Assembly (NCBI GenBank): GCA_030710605.1
Contig: CP092864.1
Span: 143,365,361 to 143,429,360 of the forward strand
Origin: Cordylochernes scorpioides
Taxonomy: Eukaryota; Arthropoda; Arachnida; Pseudoscorpiones; Chernetidae
Reading direction: 5' to 3'
DNA length: 64,000 nucleotides
In this document: positions 10,681 through 60,659 of the stretch, one piece after another
Position numbering within the stretch: the first letter of the stretch is position 1
Layout: each line of letters begins with the position of its first letter
The notes under the pieces: model-generated
Seen by the model: only the letters and a program-made list of their open reading frames with translations
The model's database searches: none
Told to the model about the DNA's origin: nothing
Position numbers and translations under genes: made by a program

Positions 10681-10904
10681 ATATTTCAGACTATGACGTC
10701 CTTTAACAGGCTATAATCTGATAGTTGATCTGTTGAAAGAGGTCATAGTCCGAATTCTTGCCAAGAATATATCGCATAGATAAAGAATAAAGAAGATTCC
10801 TTCTCTTGCAACGTAATATACTGTGTGAATATTCTGAATATATAGTAAACTATTAGATAATAAAATGGCATATATTGTATTTAATAAAATATTTATTTGA
10901 CAAT

Positions 10905-11268
10905 TTGTAAAGTATCGACAACCCCCAAATTTATTAATGATTGAGTCGATTCTAGGAAAAGGAAAAGGGTCCAAAAGGGTCTCTTTATTCAACTGTCGAT
11001 AGTCAATACAGAGTCGGTAGGACGAGTCCGTTTTAGGAACTAGAATACAAGGTGATGCGTACTCAGAAGTAGAAGGAGTAATAATATCCCCATCTAGCAT
11101 CTCCTTGATTTTTCCAGCAGTCCATGCTCTCTTGTGATCTGACATAGGGTAAGGTTTACATGCCACGATGTTATTATTGGTCTTCAATAGAAAGTCGATC
11201 TGGTGCAATGGTAATTCCTTTTTGGAGACATTGCAAAGCTTGGGGAATATAGTGATCAGGTCAAGATC
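10905..11268 (-). pseudogene. Ty3/gypsy reverse transcriptase fragment
   Basis: N-terminal part of a Ty3/gypsy reverse transcriptase, read right to left. Recognisable stretches are SPCILVPKTDSSYRLCIDYR followed by QLN, and then DPFPFPRID, the usual finger/palm motifs. The frame extends upstream of the first Met (CNVSKKELPLHQID at about 11195-11240). After the sequence GGCRYF the reading loses similarity, and the catalytic (F/Y)xDD region is absent. It is cut off at 11.27 kb by another repeat. This is a decayed, truncated retrotransposon. Its RNase H counterpart at 34.2-34.56 kb may come from the same family. Confidence 0.85.
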
Positions 11269-11302
11269 AGGTCGTTATCAAATCACTACATTTTTAACGA
11301 AT

Positions 11303-11755
11303 TAAAACATTAAAACGCGAATACTTCTTTTCACAAATATATCAAACTTCTACTGTCCTTACTGCGATGAAAAAATATTGGGAATGCTTGGCTCGTCAAT
11401 GGTGAACCCTCCCAGTGGTTTCGCAATTTTTTTTTTTTAATCTACCAGACCGCTTCTTTAGAGATCTAATACTGTATTGGATAATTCTGCTTGTATATGC
11501 TACACTGAAGGGTAGAATCTTAGAAATGGTATTTAAGAAAAATATGGACATAAGCTTTTAGGACAGAAGAATTATATTTAAATATTTGCATCAAGCAATG
11601 CTCTTCCGTAAACAATAAGGACAAGTTAGGCATAAATTAATACAAAGCAATAACGCGCCATCTATATATATAAGGAATGAAGATATTAAAACGCGAATGT
11701 TTCTTTTCACAAATAAATCAAACTTCTACTGTCCTTACTGCGATAAAACAAAATT
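11303..11755 (-). mobile_element. Direct-repeat-flanked element D1, copy 1
   Basis: About 380-bp unit bounded by two copies of a roughly 70-bp direct repeat (AACGCGAATNNTTCTTTTCAC through TACTGTCCTTACTGCGAT) at about 11310-11372 and 11687-11747. The core includes the shuffled hammerhead-like motif at 11379-11455. The same organisation occurs on the + strand at about 33575-34020, and solo or rearranged parts lie at 39765, 40140-40460, 42480-42600 and 60250-60600. A tandem or pseudo-LTR organisation with a ribozyme-like core recalls retrozymes or Penelope-like pseudo-LTRs; this is inference. Confidence 0.65.
11379..11455 (-). ncRNA. Shuffled hammerhead-like motif, copy P1 (decayed)
   Basis: On the minus strand: AGCGGTC-TGGT, then TTGCGAAACCACT, then ACCATTGACGAGCCAA. 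The pieces match the motif described at 60489-60555. However, C3 of the core is T, stem III has one mismatch, one stem II strand has lost a base, and the outer GGGAGGG/CCCTCCC stem is damaged. Confidence 0.45.
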
Positions 11756-12020
11756 ATATATTATATAGGCACATATGAAATGTGTACTGTAGGTTTTAAC
11801 TTTAGTAACTTTTATAAAATTATCGACTTTGCGTTAGAATTCAAATAACAAATTAAAACTGCAAAGATATTCTTAAATTTACCATCAAAATTTGTTATTC
11901 AGATTAGTACAAATAGTTATTTTTAAACGGGGGAATAAAATGATGTATTTTCATTTATATTATGTCATTATTTATTACCAGAATTGGGTTTTACAACAAT
12001 GATTGTTTTTTTTTTATATA
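11756..12020. other. No gene seen
   Basis: AT-rich DNA without recognisable content. Confidence 0.4.
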
Positions 12021-12298
12021 CACCTATCCCCAGATTTACACGGTAGATACGTTCCTGAGAAAAACGTGTAAATCGGGGGATAGGTGTACACAGAAATAAA
12101 AATAAAAATGCATTGACAGGTTAAAATATGTAGTCAGCACATAAGCTCGGATTCCTCGTAAGATGTGTACACAGCGCATGTGTTCAATCACAGTAGCATT
12201 TAGTATAGTGCGATAAAAACAAAAAAAAAAACTTATTTGGAAAAGGTGTAAAAGCGAAAACGTGTAAAACAAGTACCGTGTAAATCGGGGGATAGGTG
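12021..12298 (+). mobile_element. MITE family M1, copy C
   Basis: 278-bp full-length copy of subfamily 1 with TA flanks, near-perfect 5' hairpin (terminal motif followed by its inverse) and 3' terminal repeat. Confidence 0.9.
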
Positions 12299-12884
12299 TA
12301 TATCTCTCAGGAAACTTCGATATTCATAAAGTTAAAATAAATATTTTTTCTAAAAATGTGATATGATTTGAGAATTAATTTATTGATTTTTATCGGTCTC
12401 CTAAATGTTTGCAAATATTTTATGATTTCAAGATTCGATAGATAGCCAAGTGTATAGGTTTCTTCCTAACTTTGAACTAACAACAAAGTTAATTCGTCTC
12501 ATTTGGCATACATTTAAGGTACTGGCGAGTTCTCATTCAGAGACATGGTATTTTAGCACTCAGGAATCTTTGTTCCTTGATATTTACCGCTGAAAATTCA
12601 AACAACACAGAGAAGATGATCGACTAATATTCAAGAATGCTAACCATATGGTTTTTATCTCCAGCTTAGATTTCCTTCGTTCCTGAAGCTACAGACTCTA
12701 TTTATTTAACAGTTGGGAGAGACACGCCATATCCACAATTAGGATAATTGCGTGTATATTTTGAATTATATACAATTAATACAATTGAACATTGGGAATC
12801 ATGAAAATTTAACGTTCGATGTCAAATTTTGCATATAGTAATTATAAGTAGTAGCTTGAAATATGTACAGTCAACACTTTCGCC
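12299..12884. other. No gene seen
   Basis: AT-rich DNA; nothing recognised. Confidence 0.4.
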
Positions 12885-14290: not shown

Positions 14291-14570
14291 ATAATATAAA
14301 AGAACAAAAAGGAGCTTCTTATGTAGAACACGTTTATTCTGCTAGCTTTCGAAGGACATCGTTCTTCAACGGACGTGAAGATAAAGCATGACAAGATATA
14401 GAAGTCCAATGAGAGACAAGTGATATGTAAATTTGTAACTAGCATCATGACAGATAGAATTACGAAGTGATAAATTAAACCAGTTATGTAAATCTATAAA
14501 TTTGGGTAAGAAAACAATCTTAAAATGATATTGAGAAATAAGCAAATAGGGTGAGACTTTGGAAGAATTA

Positions 14571-14849
14571 CACCTATCCCCCGATTTACACGGTACTTGT
14601 TTTACACGTTTTCGCTTTTACACGGTTTTCCAAATAAGTTTTTTTTTTTGTTTTTAACGCACTATACTAAATGCTACTGTGATTGAACACATGCGCTGTG
14701 TACACATCTCACGAGGAATCCCGAGATTATGTGCTGACTATATATTTTAACCTGTCAATGCATTTTATTTTTATTTCTGTGTACACCTATCCCCCGATTT
14801 ACACGTATTTCTCAGGAACGTATCTACCGTGTAAATCGGGGGATAGGTG
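14571..14849 (-). mobile_element. MITE family M1, copy D
   Basis: 279-bp full-length subfamily-1 copy in inverse orientation with intact terminal repeats and TA flanks. The internal hairpin has lost about 10 bases of its loop relative to copy C. Confidence 0.9.
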
Positions 14850-15082
14850 TATTTTATTATCTTGTCTGGAAATCATTGTAATTTACTGTATTTCAGCATT
14901 CACCATTTAGCAGATCCTTACAAATGTTTCTATTATAACGACCTGTGCTATATGTTTAGTTTATCTTTTCACTATACAAGCGAGAAGGGAACTGTGTACA
15001 ATATCGTTAAAAACCAATTGCAAGGTTAGTTATTCTATTTTATTGTGGATATAAAACTGTTTTTTTTATGATTCCTTGTTTA

Positions 15083-25875: not shown

Positions 25876-26141
25876 ATGTTATCAGAAATTTAAACTATTT
25901 TTGACGCTTTGATTCTTTATCAAGCAGTAGAAATTTGTTTTATTTTTAAAAAGAATCATAGGCGTTAAAATAATTACTAAATATGTACGTAAATACAGAT
26001 AGTATCCAATGTAGGAATGTTGAGAGCGTTGTCATAAAAGAACCTCAACCATATTCCATTATAAAATGCCAACACCAAAGTGGTAAGAGTATAAGGCCCC
26101 ACTATTAATTCAAGAATGTCGATTCTTCGTCATTTTAAATA
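25876..26141. other. No gene seen
   Basis: Immediately upstream of the SNAG-like start on the minus strand. AT-rich with no evident promoter motif. Confidence 0.35.
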
Positions 26142-26422
26142 CACCTATCCCTCGATTTACACGGTACTTGTTTTACACGTTTTCGCTTTTACACGGTTTT
26201 TCAAATAAGTTTTTTTTTTGTTGTTTTTATCGCACTATACTAAATGCTACTGTGATTGAACACATGCGCTGTGTACACATCTCACGAGGAATCCCGAGCT
26301 TATGTGCTGACTACATATTTTAACCTGTCAATGCATTTTATTTTTATTTCAGTGTACACCTATCCCCCGATTTACACGTTTTTCTCAGGAACGTATCTAC
26401 CGTGTAAATCGGGGGATAAGTG
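26142..26422 (-). mobile_element. MITE family M1, copy E
   Basis: 281-bp full-length subfamily-1 copy, inverse orientation, TA flanks, intact terminal and internal inverted motifs. Confidence 0.9.
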
Positions 26423-26651
26423 TATTACCAAATGTAGAAACATGAAATCAAATGTAAGATTTTTATCAAAGGTTATAATTAATATAGGGTTATCATTGAA
26501 TACTAATAAAAATGAGTTATCGCTTTAAATTCCGATATTTGAATGCTGCAAAGGATTAGGCGTTGTTAAACCCTAAATTTAAGAACATTAATAATTAGGT
26601 CACGATCGAATGAGTTAATACCACTTTATTATGCCTATAGTTATCTTGCTC

Positions 26652-33480: not shown

Positions 33481-33574
33481 AAATTAATGCTTTTTTATCA
33501 CCCTACGTACTATTATTTATACAATTTTACAATGTATTTATATATATTAATGATGAGCCAAGCCCTCACAATCT

Positions 33575-34020
33575 ATTTTTTTCATCGCAATAAGGACAGT
33601 AGAGTTTTATTTATTTGTTAAAAGAAACATTCGCCCCTTTTGGTGTTTTCATTTGTATTATATAAATGGCGCGTTATTGCTATGTATTAATTTATGTTTA
33701 ACTGGCCTTGTTCTTATTGTTTGCGGAAGAGAATTGCTAGATGCAAATATTTAAATGTAATTCTACTGTCCTAAAAGCTTATGTCCATAGTTTACTCAAA
33801 TATCTAAGATTCAACCCTTCGGTGTTGCATATAAAAGCAGAATGATCCAATACAGTATTAGATCTCTAAAGAAGCGGTCTCGTAGACTAAATTGGCGAAA
33901 CCGCTGGAAGGGTTCACCACTGATGAGCCAAGCCCTCCGAATCTATTTTTTCATCGCAGTAAGGGCCGTAGAAATTTGATTTATTTGTAAAAAAAATCGC
34001 GTTTTGGTGTTTTAATTTGT
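33575..34020 (+). mobile_element. Direct-repeat-flanked element D1, copy 2
   Basis: Two direct repeats (CATCGCA(A/G)TAAGG through TTTTGGTGTTTT) lie at 33575-33650 and 33946-34013, bounding a core with ATGGCGCGTTATTGC, AGAATGATCCAATACAGTAT and the shuffled hammerhead-like motif at 33873-33939. Repeat period about 375 bp. It is the opposite-strand counterpart of the 11.3-11.75 kb element. Confidence 0.7.
33873..33939 (+). ncRNA. Shuffled hammerhead-like motif, copy P2
   Basis: AGCGGTC-TCGT, TTGGC-GAAA-CCGCT, then ACCA-CTGATGA-GCCAA. Stems III (AGCGGT/ACCGCT) and II (GCCAA/TTGGC) are perfect, the cleavage-type triplet is GTC, and stem I has one mismatch (TCGT against ACCA). The outer GGAAGGG/CCCTCCG stem is weakened. 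Confidence 0.55.
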
Positions 34021-34107
34021 ATAGTTGAAAATCGTGTCGGTACCAAAACTGGTGAATAGTTGAAAATGTATTTGAAATAAACGAGTTTTCTATTATTATA
34101 CATTTAC

Positions 34108-34201: not shown

Positions 34202-34561
34202 TTATATTGTCAAGCGGCTCCTTGACAGACAATCGGCATCCTTATGTTTGCGTCCGCTCTTGTAGATAACGGTCACGTCAAATTCTTGCAACTTCAGCGC
34301 CCATCTTGCCAAGCGGCCAGAAGGATCTTTCTGCCCTACCAACCAACATAGAGAATGATGGTCAGTGACAACCGTGAATGGTCGACCAAACAAATATGGA
34401 CGGAATTTGCTAATAGACCAGACTACAGCAAGGCATTCTTTTTCCGTTGTAGAATAGTTATTTTCAGCCTTTGTCAAGCTTCTAGATGCATAAGCTATAG
34501 GCCGCTTCTTTCCACCTTGTATTTGTAGAAGAACAGCTCCAACACCATGTCCGCTTGACAA
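34202..34561 (-). pseudogene. Ty3/gypsy RNase H fragment
   Basis: About 119 residues of the RNase H domain of a Ty3/gypsy polyprotein: [11 protein letters not shown] (the first catalytic Asp region is altered), [27 protein letters not shown] (catalytic Glu), [11 protein letters not shown] (catalytic Asp), then [20 protein letters not shown] and [10 protein letters not shown] lies beyond the truncated N-terminus and the integrase after the tether is absent. The phrase around [15 protein letters not shown] is like that of gypsy elements from chelicerates and other arthropods. A dead fragment. Confidence 0.9.
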
Positions 34562-34806
34562 TATGTTACCTGCTTCATCAATAACCTCTTTCCATTATTG
34601 TCTAATGTTTTGAAATTTAATCGAATATAATTTGTAAATAAGTGTATTTATAATTAGAAAATATTTTATAACAATCTTTTATAACAACTATATCCTGATT
34701 AAAAGTATCAATAATGGTATGTTTGTGTGAGTGTTTGTATGTATATGTTGTGTGTATTAGATTTAGGCCATAAAAAGAATATAGATTTAGGCCAGTATTA
34801 GGCCAT
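34562..34806. other. No gene seen
   Basis: AT-rich sequence between the RNase H fragment and the next retroposon. Confidence 0.4.
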
Positions 34807-36649: not shown

Positions 36650-38995
36650 ACTTGTAAACCAGCTTCAGGTCGGAATGTCGCAAGCTGTATGATGACAACT
36701 GTCACATAAACAAGAGTCAGGTCAAGATATCTGTCACGCCAACCAGTGTCAGGTCAAAATGTCGCAGGATGTGTGACAACAACTGTGACATAAACAAGAG
36801 TCAGGTCAAGATATCTGTCACGTCAACCAGAGTCAGGTCAAAATGTCGCAGGATGTGTGACAACAACTGTCACATAAACAAGAGTCAGGTCAAGATATCT
36901 GTCACGTCAACCAGAGTCAGGTCAAAATGTCGCAGGATGTGTGACAACAACTGTGACATAAACAAGAGTCAGGTCAAGATATCTGTCACGTCAACCAGAG
37001 TCAGGTCAAAATGTCGCAGGATGTGTGACAACAACTGTCACATAAACAATAGTCAGATCAAGATATCTGTCACGCCAACCAGTGTCAGGTCAAAATGTCG
37101 CAGGATGTGTGACAACAACTGTGACATAAACAAGAGTCAGGTCAAGATATCTGTCACGTCAACCAGAGTCAGGTCAAAATGTCGCAGGATGTGTGACGAC
37201 AACTGTCACATAAACAATAGTCAGATCAAGATATCTGTCATGCCAACCAGAGTCAGGTCAAAATGTCGCAGGATGTGTGGCAACAACTGTCACATCAACA
37301 AGAGTCAGGTCAAGATATCTGTCACGTCAACCAGAGTCAGGTCAAAATGTCGCAGGATGTGTGACAACAACTGTCACATAAACAATAGTCAGATCAAGAT
37401 ATCTGTCATGCCAACCAGAGTCAGGTCAAAATGTCGCAGGATGTGTGACAACAACTGTCACATAAACAAGAGTCAGATCAAGATATCTGTCACGTCAACC
37501 AGAGTCAGGTCAAAATGTCGCAGGATGTGTGACAACAACTGTCACATCAACCAGAGTCAGGTCAAGATATCTGTCATGCCAACCAGAGCCAGGTCAAATT
37601 GTCGCAGGATGTGTGACAACAACTGTGACATAAACAAGAGTCAGGTCAAGATATCTGTCATGCCAACCAGAGCCAGGTCAAATTGTCGCAGGATGTGTGA
37701 CAACAACTGTCACATAAACAAGAGTCAGGTCAAGATATCTGTCACGCCAACCAGAGTCAGGTCAAAATGTCGCAGGATGTGTGGCAACAATTGTCACATC
37801 AACGAGAGTCAGGTCAAGATATCTGTCATGCCAACCAGAGTCAGGTCAAAATGCCACAGGATGTGTGACAACAACTGTCACATAAACAAGAGTCAGATCA
37901 AGATATCTGTCACGTCAACCAGAGTCAGGTCAAAATGTCGCAGGATGTGTGACAACAACTGTCACATAAACAAGAGTCAGGTCAAGATATCTGTCACGTC
38001 AACCAGAGTCAGGTCAAAATGTCGCAGGATGTGTGGCAACAACTGTCACATCAACGAGAGTCAGGTCAAGTTATCTGTCACGCCAACCAGAGCCAGGTCA
38101 AAATGTCGCAGGATGTGTGACAACAACTGTCACATAAACAATAGTTAGATCAAGATATCTGTCATGCCAACCAGAGTCAGGTCAAAATGTCGCAGGATGT
38201 GTGACAACAACTGTCACATCAACGAGAGTCAGGTCAAGATATCTGTCACGTCAACCAGAGTCAGGTCAAAATGTCGCAGGATGTGTGACAACAACTGTGA
38301 CATAAACAAGAGTCAGGTCAAGATATCTGTCACGCCAACCAGAGCCAGGTCAAAATGTCGCAGGATGTGTGACAACAACTGTCACATAAACAAGAGTCAG
38401 ATCAAGATATCTGTCACGTCAACCAGAGTCAGGTCAAAATGTCGCAGGATGTGTGACAACAACTGTCACATCAACGAGAGTCAGGTCAAGATATCTGTCA
38501 TGCCAACCAGAGTCAGGTCAAAATGTCGCAGGATGTGTGACAACAACTGTCACATAAACAATAGTCAGATCAAGATATCTGTCACGTCAACCAGAGTCAG
38601 GTCAAAATGTCGCAGGATGTGTGACAACAACTGTCACATAAACAATAGTCAGATCAAGATATCTGTCACGCCAACCAGAGCCAGGTCAAAATGTCGCAGG
38701 ATGTGTGACGACAACTGTCACATAAACAATAGTCAGATCAAGATATCTGTCACGCCAACCAGAGCCAGGTCAAAATGTCGCAGGATGTGTGACGACAACT
38801 GTCACATCAACGAGAGTCAGGTCAAGATATCTGTCATGCCAACCAGAGTTAGGTCAAAATGTCGCAGGATGTGTGACGACAACTGTCACATCAACGAGAG
38901 TCAGGTCAAGATATCTGTCACGCCAACCAGAGCCAGGTCAAAATGTCGCTGTGATGACAAGTGTCACATCAAGGAGAGCCAGGCCGGAGTTCCGC
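36650..38995. repeat. 84-bp satellite array, about 27 units
   Basis: Each unit has two half-units that both contain GAGTCAGGTCAA, separated by ATATCTGTCACGTCAACCA and ATGTCGCAGGATGTGTGACA. Because 84 is divisible by 3, frames of 459 and 284 codons run through it, broken once by a TAG at about 38145. Repeating-unit translation is Cys/Arg/Asn/Ser-rich with no signal peptide or domain, and substitutions are not biased to third positions, so coding is unlikely. Each unit also has the inverted repeat TGTGACA/TGTCACA. Confidence 0.92.
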
Positions 38996-39205
38996 CGTTA
39001 CATCCTCCCCGTTTCTAACTCGATTTCCACCCGCAGCCCGCGAGGTACTTTCACAACTGACGGCATCTGATTCAATTACGCTACTGGCTCCAGCCGTCCT
39101 AGCTGTTTAATGAGGTTAACACGGCCGTTTCATTAGCACCTTCGATGTCATTAGGTTGTGATGTCATCATTGGGTTATGTGATAGTCATGGTTTCAGAAT
39201 GATAC
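38996..39205. promoter_or_regulatory. Candidate regulatory island after the 84-bp array
   Basis: A GC-richer unique stretch with GTTTAATGAGGTTAAC, TTTCATTAGCACC and GTCATTAGG homeodomain-type sites. No open frame of note. Confidence 0.25.
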
Positions 39206-40140: not shown

Positions 40141-40172
40141 AGCGTTTTAAAATAAAAACGTGGCAATATATT

Positions 40173-40241
40173 GGGAGGGCTTGGCTCATCAGCGGTGAAC
40201 CCTCCCAGCGGTTTCGCCAATTTAATCTACCAGACCACTTC
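40173..40241 (-). ncRNA. Shuffled hammerhead-like motif, copy P3
   Basis: Minus strand: AGTGGTC-TGGT, TTGGC-GAAA-CCGCT, GGGAGGG, ACCG-CTGATGA-GCCAA, CCCTCCC. All stems pair (stem III with one G-U, stem I with one U-G). The core and GTC triplet are intact. One of the two best-preserved copies. A part of the D1 end repeat follows at 40385-40460 in the opposite orientation. Confidence 0.6.
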
Positions 40242-40464
40242 TTTAGAGCTCTAATACTGTATTGGATCATTCTGCTTTTATGTGTTACACTGAAGGGTGG
40301 AATCTTAGAAATGGTATTTAAGCAAACTATGGACATGTGTTTTAGGACAGTAGAATTACATTTAAATATATTTTCATTTTGATCGCAGTAAGGACAGTAT
40401 AAGTTTGATTTATTTGTGAAAAGAAACATTCGCGTTTTGGTGTTTTCATTTTTATTATATAGAT

Positions 40465-40745
40465 GGCCCAGAATAAGTATATTGCTACGGCGTTTTATGG
40501 TTTCCACAAGTCCATATCTCAGAAGAAGGCCAAGTGACACTCACTCCTCACTTTCTTACTGCTACTCTTTTTGTGTTGTTTTTCTTGCTTCCCTCTTTCT
40601 CTTTCTTGTTTTTTTTTCCTTTTTTTTCTTCTGTCTATATCGTTATTTCCTTTATCTCACTGCTTTGTTCTTATGCATACCTCTGGTGAATCCTGTATAG
40701 GGTCAGTGACCCTAAATAAAGGCTTTTTGTTTTTGTTGTTGTATT
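40465..40745 (+). mobile_element. (GTT)n-tailed retroposon R1, copy 4
   Basis: 5'-truncated copy inserted into the D1 end repeat just after TTATTATATAGATGG, ending AAATAAAGGCTTTTTG and a short T/G run. The flanking duplication is short (TATTATAT-like) and not certain. Confidence 0.82.
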
Positions 40746-42533: not shown

Positions 42534-42600
42534 AGCGGTTTGGAGATTAAACTGGAAAAACCATTGAAAGTATTCACTACGGATGAGCCATACCTTTCAA
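42534..42600 (+). ncRNA. Shuffled hammerhead-like motif, copy P4 (diverged)
   Basis: AGCGGTT-TGGA, ACTGG-AAAAACCATT, then CGGATGAGCCAT. The core is damaged, but the outer stem, now ATTGAAAG/CTTTCAAT, still pairs perfectly despite a sequence quite unlike GGGAGGG/CCCTCCC. That is evidence that the hairpin itself was maintained. Confidence 0.4.
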
Positions 42601-48475: not shown

Positions 48476-49154
48476 AAAAAACTATTTAGTAGTAAATATT
48501 TAGATTTTATATTTTCTATAGTATATACAGAATACATTTTTTAATTCACGATAAATCTATGAATATAATTTGAAATCTTCTAAAAAGTAATTTCACAGCA
48601 CACAACCTATGTGTAAAAATTCCTAGTTTTGCTGAAAAATAACAAATTTAGAAAAAGAGGAAAATATTCGATTTAATACTCAAATTCTAAATTTCCACCT
48701 TTGTTTTTCATATGAATAATTGGCAAACTATGAGGAAAAACATCTTAAATTAATTTAAAAACCAAAAATGCATTTTTAAAAAATTAATCAACACATAGAG
48801 GGGATTCAATTAATTTTTCCAGGGCAGCTAGCTCTTCTTACATGAACGGTCGAAGGTAATGAGGAAGGCTAGGGAAGGAGTCATTACCATTTTTTACATT
48901 CCATAAAAACACCATTTAAAACATTATTTTTTCAGTTCTAAATATAAGCAGTAATTAAAGCTAGAAAGTTTGTGGCTGGCTTGACTTTGTTTCCTGCCTG
49001 GTTGGTTGGTTGCCTACCAGTATTAAGAGGAAAACCCTCTACCGAGATATATTCCAAATCTGTCCTCCATTGATCTTCCATTTGTTCTTTGTTCTCATCA
49101 CCACATATATATTGTAATATATGTCAATATATACTTATATCCCCATATGTGATA
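48476..49154. other. No gene seen
   Basis: AT-rich unique DNA. Confidence 0.4.
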
Positions 49155-49434
49155 CACCTATCCCCCGATTTACACGGTAGATACGTTCCTGAGAAAAAAC
49201 GTGTAAATCGGGGGATAGGTGTACACAGAAATAAAAATAAAATGCATTGACAGGTTAAAATATGTAGTCAGCACATAAGCTCGGGATTCCTTGTGAGATG
49301 TGTACACAGCGCATGTGTTCAATCACAGTAGCATTTAATACAGTGCGATAAAAACAAAACAAAAAACTTATTTGTAAAACCGTGTAAAAGCGAAAACGCG
49401 TAAAACAAGTACCGTGTAAATCGGGGGATAGACG
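49155..49434 (+). mobile_element. MITE family M1, copy G
   Basis: 280-bp subfamily-1 copy with TA flanks. The right terminus has decayed to GGGGATAGACG. Confidence 0.88.
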
Positions 49435-50300
49435 TATAGCTATAGTATAACAACCAAAACTGTAGACACAATTCAACATGCCAATTTGGCCATCACGTAA
49501 TACAAAACGAAATAATAAAATTTTATTGAGTGACAGCCGGCGCCAGACAGGAGAAAGGTCTCCGATTACACCGTCGGTCAAAAAACATGTCGAATTACCA
49601 GTCCTTCTTTGACACTAGATCAGACCTCCTTGACAGGCGTCCGGCATCACTCACTCTGAGGTGACATCCAACCTGCCTTGTCCTTTTGTGCGATTCATTC
49701 ACGCCTGAAACCACTCTGAACATTGAGGCCATCACAACTGAATCTAACCAACCACACCACAGTCATCCGACAGGATAAACAAAGAGTTAAATCGCTCTTT
49801 GTAGCCGCTCCTATGGAGAATAGACACTACCAATTGATACCTTTATACATTAGCAGGGTGTGTAGCACAGGGTGGCCCTACCTGGAATTAAACTCCCGAC
49901 GTCCTCTACTACCTGTTTACACCCTCCCACCACTTTGAGGCTGTAGGATAGAATTTTAGGAGTATATATATATAGAATAAGTATATGTAGAAAAAATTTG
50001 GTTCATTTTGGTCAATTTTCAATGATTTATATACTTTTTTTTTAGAGGATTGGGTGGCGAGTGAGGAGAGTTGCTGGTTTGTCTGGTTTGTCCCGGCAGT
50101 TAGAGGGCAGCTGACACACGCACGCTCGCACGCACTCACGTGCCACCGTTTGCCAGCGTTTAGATGTAATTGGGGACAAAGTGACTTGTGGCGTCGTCAC
50201 ATGGGAGTTCCCAGACCAATGGCCACACGCCAGTTCCAGCTGTTCGGATCTAACTTACATAACGGCTTGGTGATATGGTGAGGGATGTTTTCTGACCGCA
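49435..50300. other. GC-richer unique region, possible SINE and regulatory island
   Basis: 49540-49930 is GC-richer with an inverted box-B-like GGAATTAAACTCCC near 49886, possibly an old tRNA-derived SINE. 50040-50290 is another GC-richer stretch with CACGTGCCACC, CAGCTG and CCAAT-type sites. No recognisable protein. Confidence 0.3.
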
Positions 50301-52255: not shown

Positions 52256-53281
52256 GCAATAAACACCAGGTAGCCGTTTAAATTTGTCAAAGCAGGTGTT
52301 GAGAGATGTTCAATAAATTGGCATATGTTTTGTTATAATAATTATATTTGTTATAGTAATTTTATGTGGAAGAGAGGTTTCCTTTTATTGAGATAACAAT
52401 ATCCCCCTCCCCCCCAGTAAAATTCTTTTTTTTTTTTTAATATATAAAAAGTTAATATTATCAGCACAAATTTGTACTCACATAGAGACACACATTGCAA
52501 CAAACTATCACAAAATATATTTAAAATCCAAAAGCAACAAGTAAACGATAATATAAAGGGCTTCTCAACTGATTAACCAAGCTTTCTAGATTATTTTTTC
52601 TAACTATAGTAAATTTGGAGAAGTAGTAATTATCTATTATAGTATATTTTAATCGTATCATAACCTTCTATCGCTGATAGTTTAAGAATTTAACGTTACT
52701 TTATATAATTGAAAATATTACTATATATATACATGTTATATGAAAATATTCTTTTATTTAAAATTATAATTTCATAGATTCAAATACTCTGCTAAATCGA
52801 CCGCCAGAGGTTACGCTTCCACTATATAAACTCATTGTTGTTCTATCCCAATGGCCGGCTCAAAACTTTTGTACATTATGTAAATAATCTTTTGTTTTCT
52901 TTATTCTACTCGCCTTAAGCCAGACATTGATCAAATTATGTTTTTCATATATATTCCTTAGCTCAATTAAAGCAACCTCTGATCAAAACCATTTTCATTA
53001 TCAATCTTTCAAGATTTTAACCACGACTGCATTACATTACCATAATCCTCAACCTGATCTGAAATCAAGCAGAAAATCAAATCTCATTTGTTTTTATAAT
53101 ATACACACAACTCTTATTTTTCCAATCCTATATAAATGCTATAAAATGTCAATGCTATCAAAAATATATTCAAGAAAAACAGTAGTAATGCGGTCTGGAG
53201 AAGGGTTCATCACTAATGAGAAATACGATTTTTAATTTTAAAAATTAGCTCAAAAATATAGTTTTAACTTTCATAAAAGTA
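52256..53281. other. No gene seen
   Basis: AT-rich. Near 53185-53215 a GCGGTCTGGAGAAGGGTTCA fragment is a remnant of a D1 element with the middle of the shuffled motif deleted. Confidence 0.45.
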
Positions 53282-53554
53282 CACCTATCCCCCGATTTAA
53301 ACGGTAGATACGTTCCTGAGAAAAACGTGTAAATCGGGGGATAGGTGTACACAGAAATAAAAATAAAATGCATTGACAGGTTAAAATATGTATTCAGCAC
53401 ATAAGCTCGGGATTCCTCGTGAGATTTGTACACAGCGCATGTGTTCAATCACAGTAGCATTTAGTATAGTGCGATAAACAAAAAAAAAATATTTGGAAAA
53501 CCGTGTAAAAGCGAAAACGTGTAAAAAAGTACAGTGTAAATCGGGGGATAGGTG
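53282..53554 (+). mobile_element. MITE family M1, copy H
   Basis: 273-bp subfamily-1 copy with TA flanks. Confidence 0.9.
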
Positions 53555-53599
53555 TAAATGAAAGATCGTCACAATAGTTTTACTATTACATATTTTTTT

Positions 53600-58690: not shown

Positions 58691-59757
58691 ATGTCACACT
58701 GCTTCACCCCCCGTCTCCCACTGTTCTCCTTCGATGTCCACACGGCACATGTGACACTGGTAACAATGCTTCACCCCGTCTCCCGCTGTTCTTCTTTAAT
58801 GTCCACAGTACCGGCACACATGTGACATTGGTGACAATGCTTCACCCCGTCTCCCACTGTCCTCCTTTAATGTCCACAGTACCGGCACACATGTGACATG
58901 GGTGTCAATGCTTCACCCCGTCTCCCACTGTCCTCCTTTAATGTCCACAGTACCGGCACACATGTGACATTGGTGACAATGCTTCACCCCGTCTCCCACT
59001 GTCCTCCTTTAATGTCCACAGTACCGGCACACATGTGATATTAGTGACAATGCTTCACCCAGTCTCCCACTGTTCTCCTTTAATGTCCACAGTACCGGCA
59101 CACATGTGACATTGGTGACAATGCTTCACCCCGTCTCCCACTGTCCTCCTTTAATGTCCACAGTACCGGCACACATGTGATATTAGTGACAATGCTTCAC
59201 CCAGTCTCCCACTGTTCTCCTTTAATGTCCACAGTACCGGCACACATGTGACATTGGTGACAATGCTTCACCCCGTCTCCCACTGTCCTCCTTTAATGTC
59301 CACAGTACCGGCAGACATGTGGCATTGGTGACAATGCTTCATTCCGTCTTTCACTGTTCTCCTTTAATGTCGACAGTACCGGCACTCATGTGACATTGGT
59401 AACAATGCTTCACCCCGTCTCCCACTGTCCTCCTTTAATGTCCACAGTACCGGCACTCATGTGACATGGGTGACAATGCTTCATTCCGTCTTTCACTGTT
59501 CTCCTTTAATGTCCACAGTACTGGCACACATGTGACATGGGTGACAATGCTCACCCCGTCTCCCACTGTCCTCCTTTAATGTCCACAGTACCGGCACTCA
59601 TGTGACATGGGTGACAATGCTTCATTCCGTCTTTCACTGTTCTCCTTTAATGTCCACAGTACTGGCACACATGTGACATGGGTGACAATGCTCACCCCGT
59701 CTCCCACTGTTCTCTTTTAATGTCCACAGTACCAGCACACATGTGACATTGCAGGTG
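58690..59757. repeat. 71-bp minisatellite array, about 15 units
   Basis: Units contain CAATGCTTCACCCCGTCTCC, CTCCTTTAATGTCCACAGTA and CCGGCACACATGTGACATTG. Periodicity is 71 bp; two-unit variants (TGATATTAGTGACAATGC) repeat in alternation, showing multi-unit duplication. Confidence 0.93.
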
Positions 59758-60250
59758 CGATATTATATCATCCAGTCCCTCGTCGTGATTCTGGTCGGGC
59801 CAGTAGTACTTCATTCAGTGACATATACCTGATTTCTTAAAATGCATATTCTATAAGGTTCGAAATAATTTTGGAAAATCCATCGCCATTTTTCACCGTG
59901 TTCCTATGCTTTTTAATAATTTATTCATAATCTATTATAATATCAATGTTTTAACCGCTTCTTCCCAAATATTGATTGAACTTACATTGAATGTCAAACA
60001 GGATATTTTAAAATTTATTAAAGTATTATACGATAAATTTATAATTGGTTTTCTATTTGGGGAATGTGATATTACATATAGGTACATTGTAGTGAGTATC
60101 ATACACTACTTTCAGGCCCGGTTGACTTCTTTCCTTTATCTATAAACCTCGTACTTATAAATAAAAAAACTTTATGAGGCGACTTCAGAATGAGTTCTGT
60201 GCTAACGAAATCCAACATAGATAATATCAAAAAGAATCTTACGCCTTTAA
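59758..60250. other. No gene seen
   Basis: AT-rich. The 79-codon frame at 59906 is not recognised. Confidence 0.4.
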
Positions 60251-60600
60251 AATAGTTTTGAATTTTGATAACAGATGGCGCGCTAGTGCATCATATTATA
60301 AATGTTCTAATAAAAGAAACTATTTGATATTTGCGGAAGAGCGATTGCTCGAAGCATATTATATATTTATAAATGTATGTAATTCTACTGTCCTCAAAGC
60401 TTATGTCCATAGTTCTTCTAAAATACCCATTCAAAGAGTCTACCAACAGTATCACTATAAAAGGAAGTTCCAAAAAATGCAATATAACAGCGGTATGGTA
60501 GATTAAACTGGCGAAACCGCTGAGAGGGTTCACCACTGATGAGCCAGGCCCTCTCATTAATTTTTTCCATTGCAGTAAGGGCAGTAGAATTTGCTTAATA
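60250..60600 (+). mobile_element. Direct-repeat element D1, copy 3 (partial)
   Basis: Contains GATGGCGCGCTAGTGC, GATTGCTCGAAGCATATTAT, TTCTACTGTCCTCAAAGCTT, the shuffled hammerhead-like motif and the start of the end repeat (CATTGCAGTAAGGGCAGTAG). The phrase AATCTTACGCCTTTAAAATA with TTTTGAATTTTGATAA flanks it on both sides (about 60235 and 60610), consistent with a target-site or local duplication. Confidence 0.65.
60489..60555 (+). ncRNA. Shuffled hammerhead-like motif, copy P5 (best preserved, covaried)
   Basis: Order: AGCGGT-A-TGGT, AGATTAAA, CTGGC-GAAA-CCGCT, GAGAGGG-TTC, ACCA-CTGATGA-GCCAG, CCCTCTC. In hammerhead terms, stem III is AGCGGT/ACCGCT (6 bp, closing on A15.1-U16.1), the NUH triplet is GTA, stem I is TGGT/ACCA (4 bp), and stem II is GCCAG/CTGGC (5 bp), each abutting the proper core piece. 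The stem II end pair is C-G here against T-A in P2 and P3, and the outer stem is GAGAGGG/CCCTCTC against GGGAGGG/CCCTCCC: two independent compensatory changes. The linear order of the three strands differs from any circular permutation of a known hammerhead, so activity cannot be assumed. Confidence 0.6.
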
Positions 60601-60659
60601 TCAAAAAGAATCTTACGCCTTTAAAATAGTTTTGAATTTTGATAATAGATAAGGTTTCT

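What the first reader, a model, noticed from the sequence alone, without database searches (positions are those of the whole stretch)
60489..60555. Hammerhead core pieces in a non-canonical strand order, with compensatory changes
Five dispersed copies (11.4, 33.9, 40.2, 42.56 and 60.5 kb) contain an NUH triplet, GAAA and CTGATGA, each flanked in exact register by strands able to form stems I (TGGT/ACCA), II (GCCAA/TTGGC) and III (AGCGGT/ACCGCT). Stem II changes T-A to C-G between copies, and the outer stem pairs as GGGAGGG/CCCTCCC, GAGAGGG/CCCTCTC or ATTGAAAG/CTTTCAAT. The strand order is NUH strand, GAAA strand, CTGATGA strand, which is the reverse cyclic order of all known hammerhead types and makes the helices mutually pseudoknotted. 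Register agreement of all three stems is very unlikely by chance. It could be a new ribozyme topology, a trans- or dimer-acting form, or an unrelated RNA that converged.
Basis: partly seen in the sequence, partly recalled or inferred. Interest (0 to 1): 0.88.

Follow-up and report, generated by a model that had tools for sequence, protein, structure and literature searches.

The report
Permuted hammerhead in an animal retroelement
A self-cutting RNA motif whose three pieces are wired in an unusual order, which we found described only from environmental sequence data, appears here tens of thousands of times in one animal's chromosomes, inside a small repeated mobile element.

Summary
Three of the five window copies (33.87, 40.2, 60.5 kb) keep the catalytic nucleotides; those at 11.4 and 42.5 kb do not. 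The order NUH strand, GAAA strand, CUGAUGA strand, with an extra outer helix, is that of the "type-SGC" non-circularly permuted hammerhead (Eckert et al. 2023, PMC10085705), shown there to cleave in vitro. So the topology is not new. That paper reports no type-SGC RNA from a genome of a known organism.

What appears new is the setting. The core lies in a 368-373 bp unit repeated head-to-tail (at least five units in one locus), with clustered 3' ends, scattered 5' ends and head-to-head joints, in a 2.62 Gb assembly that I take for an animal's. An exact pattern spanning the core occurs 41,352 times (reversed-pattern control 0). Three subfamilies differ by compensated changes in stems I and II (the pseudoknotted ones) and in the outer helix. 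Stem III hardly varies and gives no support.

Best reading: a retrozyme-like element that processes its RNA with a type-SGC hammerhead and is copied by a reverse transcriptase, perhaps that of Penelope-like elements. Cleavage, expression and circular RNA are inferred, not tested.

The parts
60489..60555 (+). type-SGC hammerhead core, subfamily B variant
60489..60495 (+). block S 5' part: stem III 5' strand AGCGGT and cleavage triplet GTA; predicted cleavage after 60495
   Evidence: read; cleavage position by analogy with type SGC (PMC10085705)
60496..60499 (+). stem I strand TGGT, 3' of the predicted cleavage site
60508..60521 (+). block G: stem II strand CTGGC, GAAA (60513-60516), stem III strand ACCGCT
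60522..60528 (+). outer (fourth) helix, 5' strand GAGAGGG
60532..60547 (+). block C: stem I strand ACCA, CTGATGA (60536-60542), stem II strand GCCAG
60549..60555 (+). outer helix, 3' strand CCCTCTC
60222..60650 (+). partial dimer: direct repeats 60222-60276 and 60596-60650 (spacing 374) around the core
33873..33939 (+). core copy with intact catalytic nucleotides and a C-C mismatch in stem I
33551..34022 (+). partial dimer, spacing 370; left repeat begins at TGATGAGCC inside the core
40173..40239 (-). core copy, intact, with G-U pairs in stems I and III
40165..40470 (-). unit fragment 40165-40369(-) joined to an inverted piece 40365-40470(+)
11380..11454 (-). decayed core copy (TTGACGA, A-run insertion)
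11286..11755 (-). partial dimer around the decayed copy, spacing 376
42534..42599 (+). decayed or divergent core copy (CGGATGA, no G in GAAA) that keeps outer-helix pairing

Best explanation
The motif is a type-SGC (non-circularly permuted) hammerhead self-cleaving ribozyme. Stem III forms a local hairpin. The CUGAUGA strand is the loop of the outer hairpin and docks back into the stem III loop, forming stems I and II and the normal hammerhead core. The short linker after stem I and the outer helix hold stems I and II side by side. It would cleave after GUC (GUA in subfamily B). It sits in a 368-373 bp unit in head-to-tail arrays: a retrozyme-like non-autonomous retroelement. Arrays would be transcribed, cut to unit length, probably circularised, and copied back at new sites by a reverse transcriptase, possibly that of Penelope-like elements. 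Shown here: motif, register, genome-wide copy number, arrays, end patterns, compensated changes in stems I, II and the outer helix. Inferred: cleavage, transcription, circular RNA, and which enzyme mobilises it.
For: Exact blocks and stems. 41,352 core-spanning and 58,578 G-to-C-block exact pattern matches, reversed controls 0. Stem II outer pair genome-wide: U-A 35,311, C-G 24,728, against C-A 1,154 and U-G 895. On 39 distinct cores 93.0% of cells pair against 34-57% in slid registers; stems I and II alone 93.7% against 22-44%. Subfamily A to B: both stem changes form one compensated pair (p 0.010); A to C: four of five stem changes form two compensated pairs (p 0.0016) (simulation on one exemplar each). 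Core identity among one copy each of A, B, C 88-90% against 40-64% in three of four flanking blocks. Same order and fourth helix as type SGC, cleaved in vitro (PMC10085705). Units of 371, 373 and 368 bp in arrays, clustered 3' and scattered 5' ends, flanking duplications of 9 and 11 bp at 2 of 15 insertions.
Against: No cleavage or RNA data. Stem III shows no double change in 39 cores, so its pairing rests on invariance. The compensated changes are few founder events; for stems I and II alone the number of pairs with double changes (3) was reached by 17 of 500 shuffles. One A-to-C change at the end of stem I is uncompensated. One flanking block is also conserved (71-81% among A, B, C), and against the 42.5 kb copy the core is only 63-76% identical. 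The linker between stems I and II is 5-8 nt, not the typical 3. The 371-nt unit folds no better than shuffles (z +1.0). No Rfam family reached its gathering score there, nor a meaningful match around two copies at permissive settings. No duplication was accepted at 13 of 15 insertions.
Confidence: 0.83

Rival explanations
1. Two plain hairpins (AGCGGT/ACCGCT and GGGAGGG/CCCTCCC) of a repeat element, for instance a protein- or reverse-transcriptase-binding site; the hammerhead likeness is accidental.
For: Ordinary folding, which cannot show pseudoknots, predicts these two hairpins, and a second non-hammerhead block of the unit is conserved too.
Against: It does not explain the compensated changes in stems I and II, the conserved catalytic nucleotides, or the register (one SGC locus in 200 shuffles).
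Confidence: 0.08
2. A canonical hammerhead formed across tandem units: the CUGAUGA strand of one unit, the GAAA strand of the next and the NUH strand of the third pair in nested order, with loops of roughly 300 nt, in multimeric transcripts.
For: Arrays of at least five units exist, and the strands in this order would nest.
Against: It needs very long loops; it does not explain the conserved outer helix and short linkers; type-SGC RNAs of one core cleave in cis (PMC10085705).
Confidence: 0.05
3. A fossil: the ribozyme was active when the element spread but all present copies are inert, and the element is now only repeat DNA.
For: Many copies are decayed (2 of 5 in the window).
Against: Tens of thousands of copies match the core pattern exactly, and cores 94-100% identical to the 33.9 kb query recur on most contigs among the 40 candidates scored.
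Confidence: 0.1

Closest known systems
Type-SGC hammerhead ribozyme / HRIMA-1 motif (Eckert et al. 2023, PMC10085705)
   Same: Block order S-G-C, catalytic nucleotides, stems I-III mutually pseudoknotted, a fourth helix joining the other ends of stems I and II, and no nucleotides between stem III and that helix (0-44 nt in the paper)
   Different: The paper reports none from a genome of a known organism; here it is in an animal genome in tens of thousands of copies; linker 5-8 nt instead of typically 3. The stem I sequence that the paper calls conserved in HRIMA-1 was not seen by me
Metazoan retrozymes with type I hammerheads (Cervera and de la Pena 2020, PMC7229834)
   Same: Small units (150-450 bp) in dimers to long arrays, high copy number, hammerhead in the unit
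   Different: Those carry type I (CGS) hammerheads; this one is type SGC; circular RNA not tested here
Penelope-like elements (PMC11167929, PMC7229834)
   Same: Tandem and partial-tandem copies; inverted joints (recalled hallmark); hammerhead in the repeat
   Different: The unit is too short for the RT plus GIY-YIG protein; those elements carry atypical type I hammerheads

Membership tests
Type-SGC hammerhead | 5'-3' order NUH block, GAAA block, CUGANGA block | tested here: met
Type-SGC hammerhead | Hammerhead catalytic nucleotides and A-U pair at the core of stem III | tested here: met
   3 of 5 window copies and 41,352 genome matches to a pattern that fixes them; two window copies decayed
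Type-SGC hammerhead | Stems I and II supported by covariation | tested here: met
   one pair in I and two in II with changes on both sides; few independent events
Type-SGC hammerhead | Stem III supported by covariation | tested here: inconclusive
   no double change in 39 cores
Type-SGC hammerhead | Fourth helix linking stems I and II | tested here: met
   7 pairs, three with double changes, 90.8% of cells paired
Type-SGC hammerhead | Short linker (typically 3 nt) between stem I and stem II | tested here: inconclusive
   8 nt with a 4-bp stem I; 5 nt if stem I extends to 7 bp in subfamily A (read from the sequences)
Type-SGC hammerhead | Self-cleavage after the NUH triplet | not testable with these tools
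   needs in vitro transcription
Canonical hammerhead types I, II, III | Cyclic order CUGANGA, GAAA, NUH | tested here: not met
   the strict descriptor in the 200-kb systematic sample gave SGC 2, other orders 0
Metazoan retrozyme | Units of 150-450 bp in tandem arrays | tested here: met
   371, 373, 368 bp
Metazoan retrozyme | Type I hammerhead in the unit | tested here: not met
   the core is type SGC; a Hammerhead_1 search of the genome was uninformative
Metazoan retrozyme | Target-site duplications longer than 4 bp, when present | tested here: inconclusive
   9 and 11 bp at 2 of 15 insertions
Metazoan retrozyme | No LTR, primer-binding site or polypurine tract; low GC | not tested
   not searched for in the unit
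Metazoan retrozyme | Expressed as small circular RNA | not testable with these tools
   no RNA data
Penelope-like element | Encodes RT with GIY-YIG endonuclease | tested here: not met
   the unit is only 368-373 bp; separate GIY-YIG reading frames exist in the genome

The most novel reading that the evidence does not exclude
A non-circularly permuted (type-SGC) hammerhead is the working processing ribozyme of a very abundant animal retrozyme-like element, making about 371-nt circular RNAs: the first cellular-genome home for this ribozyme topology, and a sign that permuted hammerheads spread with retroelements and may be widespread but unseen, because Rfam models and canonical descriptors did not or would not match them.
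Probability: 0.68. Interest if true: 0.85.

Novelty: new variant of a known kind. Interest (0 to 1): 0.77.

Why it matters
In the library searched, permuted hammerheads are described in one paper, from environmental sequence data without named hosts. A host genome with 41,352 exact matches to a core-spanning pattern gives a testable organism, a likely role (unit-length processing of a retroelement RNA) and a large natural set of variants for structure-function work. It suggests that hammerhead surveys looking for types I-III have missed a class, and it shows the same block logic in a small mobile element.

Tried and rejected
Terminal-inverted-repeat MITE: a first guess from the flanking ~90-bp repeats; rejected because in three of the four elements compared the repeats are direct. 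Known RNA families: only three tRNAs in the window at gathering scores; permissive searches around two of the five copies gave only weak unrelated matches. C/D snoRNA (CTGA and TGATGA boxes) was considered from recall only, not tested separately. Viral or prokaryotic origin: a 17-base pattern found 2 viral contigs, where no other core part is seen by eye in about 200 bases around the match; a longer pattern found 0 in viral contigs and 0 in genome contigs. Canonical Hammerhead_1 in the genome: 0 of 74 scored of 285,298 candidates, no control genome rang, so uninformative. The search with the 60.5 kb core as DNA gave 0 candidates, probably because the tool skips very common words. Pattern for the 42.5 kb copy: I set a wrong gap length, so its 0 means nothing. 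A first end-mapping script was spoilt by a BLAST option and was repeated. Dropped rows: L014:2604-2670, an inverted-joint artefact, was left out before alignment A1 (40 distinct cores, 39). In one search two further 9-base AT-rich flank matches (L019, L004) were not counted as duplications.

Full report
Observation. The core at 60489-60555 reads AGCGGT-A-TGGT-AGATTAAA-CTGGC-GAAACCGCT-GAGAGGG-TTC-ACCA-CTGATGA-GCCAG-G-CCCTCTC. Stem III (AGCGGT/ACCGCT), stem I (TGGT/ACCA), stem II (CTGGC/GCCAG) and an outer helix (GAGAGGG/CCCTCTC) are in exact hammerhead register. Relatives lie at 33873-33939(+), 40173-40239(-), 11380-11454(-) and 42534-42599(+). Only three of the five keep the catalytic nucleotides; the 11.4 and 42.5 kb copies do not, and the 33.9 kb copy has a C-C mismatch in stem I. 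A strict structural descriptor, free as to block order, finds two SGC sites in the window and one AT-rich CSG site; 200 dinucleotide shuffles gave five loci in all orders together, one of them SGC.

What it is. Eckert et al. 2023 (PMC10085705; I read the abstract, sections 7, 12, 13, 14, 15, part 1 of 18, and passages) describe six possible block orders of the hammerhead and a natural non-circular permutation, type SGC, with the order seen here, the same pseudoknotting, and a fourth helix joining stems I and II. Five candidates expected to work cleaved in vitro at the predicted site; a sixth without the site did not. In one of them (SGC-3) each of the four stems was broken and rescued by compensation. 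They note cases with no nucleotides between stem III and the fourth helix, as here. [quoted passage not shown] A library search for type-SGC with hammerhead found only that paper; other wordings added two software papers that cite it, and unrelated papers (listings only). The library holds open-licence papers only.

Where it is. The window carries a CUT-domain reading frame (Pfam PF02376), which I take for an animal Onecut exon (gene name recalled); the assembly has 2.62 Gb in 24 contigs. No species name was given. Pattern counts over the whole assembly: GGCGAAACC, 8-30 nt, CACNNCTGANGAGCC: 58,578; a pattern from CGGTHT to the outer helix, which fixes the catalytic nucleotides but leaves stem I and parts of the other stems free: 41,352; reversed-pattern controls 0 in both. 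Only the first 100 places are listed by the tool. A systematic sample of twenty 10-kb stretches (200 kb, 6,454 N) held 13 core hits at E below 1e-5 (15 below 0.01), 7 of the 13 in one stretch. The strict descriptor in that sample gave SGC 2 and no other order.

The element. The cores lie in units of 371, 373 and 368 bp. L026 has at least five units on one side of a head-to-head joint and at least three in the other direction. Of 55 untruncated runs longer than 120 bases, 20 end (3') at unit positions 175-191, 18 at 145-158, 12 at 116-135 (the last largely copies divergent from the query) and 5 elsewhere, while 5' ends are scattered from 5 to 367. These runs include both arms of joints and a few duplicated loci, so they are not all independent. 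Duplicated flanks of 11 bp (L005) and 9 bp (L028) were found at 2 of 15 insertions examined. This fits reverse transcription that starts at preferred internal sites of a circular or multimeric RNA and stops anywhere. Metazoan retrozymes are small tandem elements of this build but with type I hammerheads (PMC7229834; abstract and sections 13, 14, 17 read). Penelope-like elements occur in tandem and partial tandem, and one of them cleaves both target strands (PMC11167929; abstract and section 3 part 1 read). GIY-YIG reading frames are plentiful here: 146 matches of 150 scored out of 17,015 candidates, with modest scores (best E 1.3e-5), many in long frames and some in inverted pairs. Of the four on contig C1 below 9.6 Mb, the one at 5.05 Mb lies 46 kb from the nearest core listed; the three near 9 Mb lie 12-15 kb from the nearest subfamily-B core, and the lists for the other subfamilies end before 5.4 Mb. 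So nothing shows that those elements carry this ribozyme, and the test is weak.

Structure test. Three subfamilies recur. A: GUC, UUGGC/GCCAA, GGGAGGG/CCCUCCC. B: GUA, CUGGC/GCCAG. C: GUC, stem I UAG/CUA, GAGAGGG/CCCUCUC. Between A and B the two stem changes form one compensated pair in stem II (p 0.010 by simulation). Between A and C four of five stem changes form compensated pairs in stem I and the outer helix (p 0.0016). The fifth, at the end of stem I, is not compensated. On 39 distinct cores the structure pairs in 93.0% of cells against 34-57% with partners slid, and has 6 pairs with double changes against 2.4 in shuffles. Stems I and II alone, which plain hairpins would not predict, pair in 93.7% against 22-44%; their 3 pairs with double changes were reached by 17 of 500 shuffles, the 9 cells with double changes by none. 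Genome-wide the outer pair of stem II is U-A in 35,311, C-G in 24,728, C-A in 1,154 and U-G in 895 exact matches; this shows co-segregation, but much of it reflects subfamily ancestry, not independent events. Stem III has no double change. Core identity among one copy each of A, B, C is 88-90%; one upstream block is also conserved (71-81%), the other blocks are 40-64%; against the 42.5 kb copy the core is 63-76% and the flanks 30-60%.

Mechanism. Most likely the transcript folds stem III and the outer hairpin locally (both are in the minimum-energy fold), the CUGAUGA loop then docks to form stems I and II, and the RNA cuts itself after GUC or GUA. Cutting tandem transcripts gives unit-length RNA, which may be ligated to circles and copied. 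The cut, the circle and the enzyme are inferred. Against: the unit shows no excess folding stability (z +1.0), the linker between stems I and II is longer than typical, and there are no RNA data.

Verdict. The ribozyme topology is known (type SGC). Its presence in an animal genome, in tens of thousands of copies and inside a retrozyme-like element, I found nowhere in the library searches named above. I rate it a new variant of a known kind.

Noticed in passing
window 33551, L004:1887, L008:1891: Insertions begin at TGATGAGCC, inside the ribozyme's CUGAUGA. L004 shares its flank with the window copy, L008 does not. A preferred stop of reverse transcription there is possible.
   Followed up: partly
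L030 unit, window 60.5 kb copy and L023 unit, -150 to -71 upstream of the core: A second block (around CTATAAGCTTATGTCCATAGTTTACT) is conserved 71-81% between subfamilies while its neighbours are not; perhaps a promoter or reverse-transcriptase recognition site.
   Followed up: partly
G000, e.g. C1:8987892(-)/8990875(+), C14:2435506(-)/2439230(+): GIY-YIG reading frames in inverted pairs a few kb apart, as expected of Penelope-like elements.
   Followed up: no
window 58720-59749: Tandem array with a period of about 71 bp.
   Followed up: no
window 36658-39018: Tandemly repetitive stretch that is open as long reading frames.
   Followed up: no
window 12010-12303, 14569-14852, 26139-26425, 49152-49438, 53268-53559 and others: A dispersed family of about 285 bp with internal inverted repeats, many copies in the window.
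   Followed up: no
window 34205-34594(-): RNase H fragment of a reverse transcriptase (Pfam RT_RNaseH), gypsy-like by recall; the frame at 10714-11274(-) looks gypsy-like by eye but matched no Pfam family.
   Followed up: partly
G000:C1:4424386-4424449(-): A divergent core with ATGGC/GCCAT in stem II, a third pair type at the outer position, but with broken pairs in stem I.
   Followed up: no
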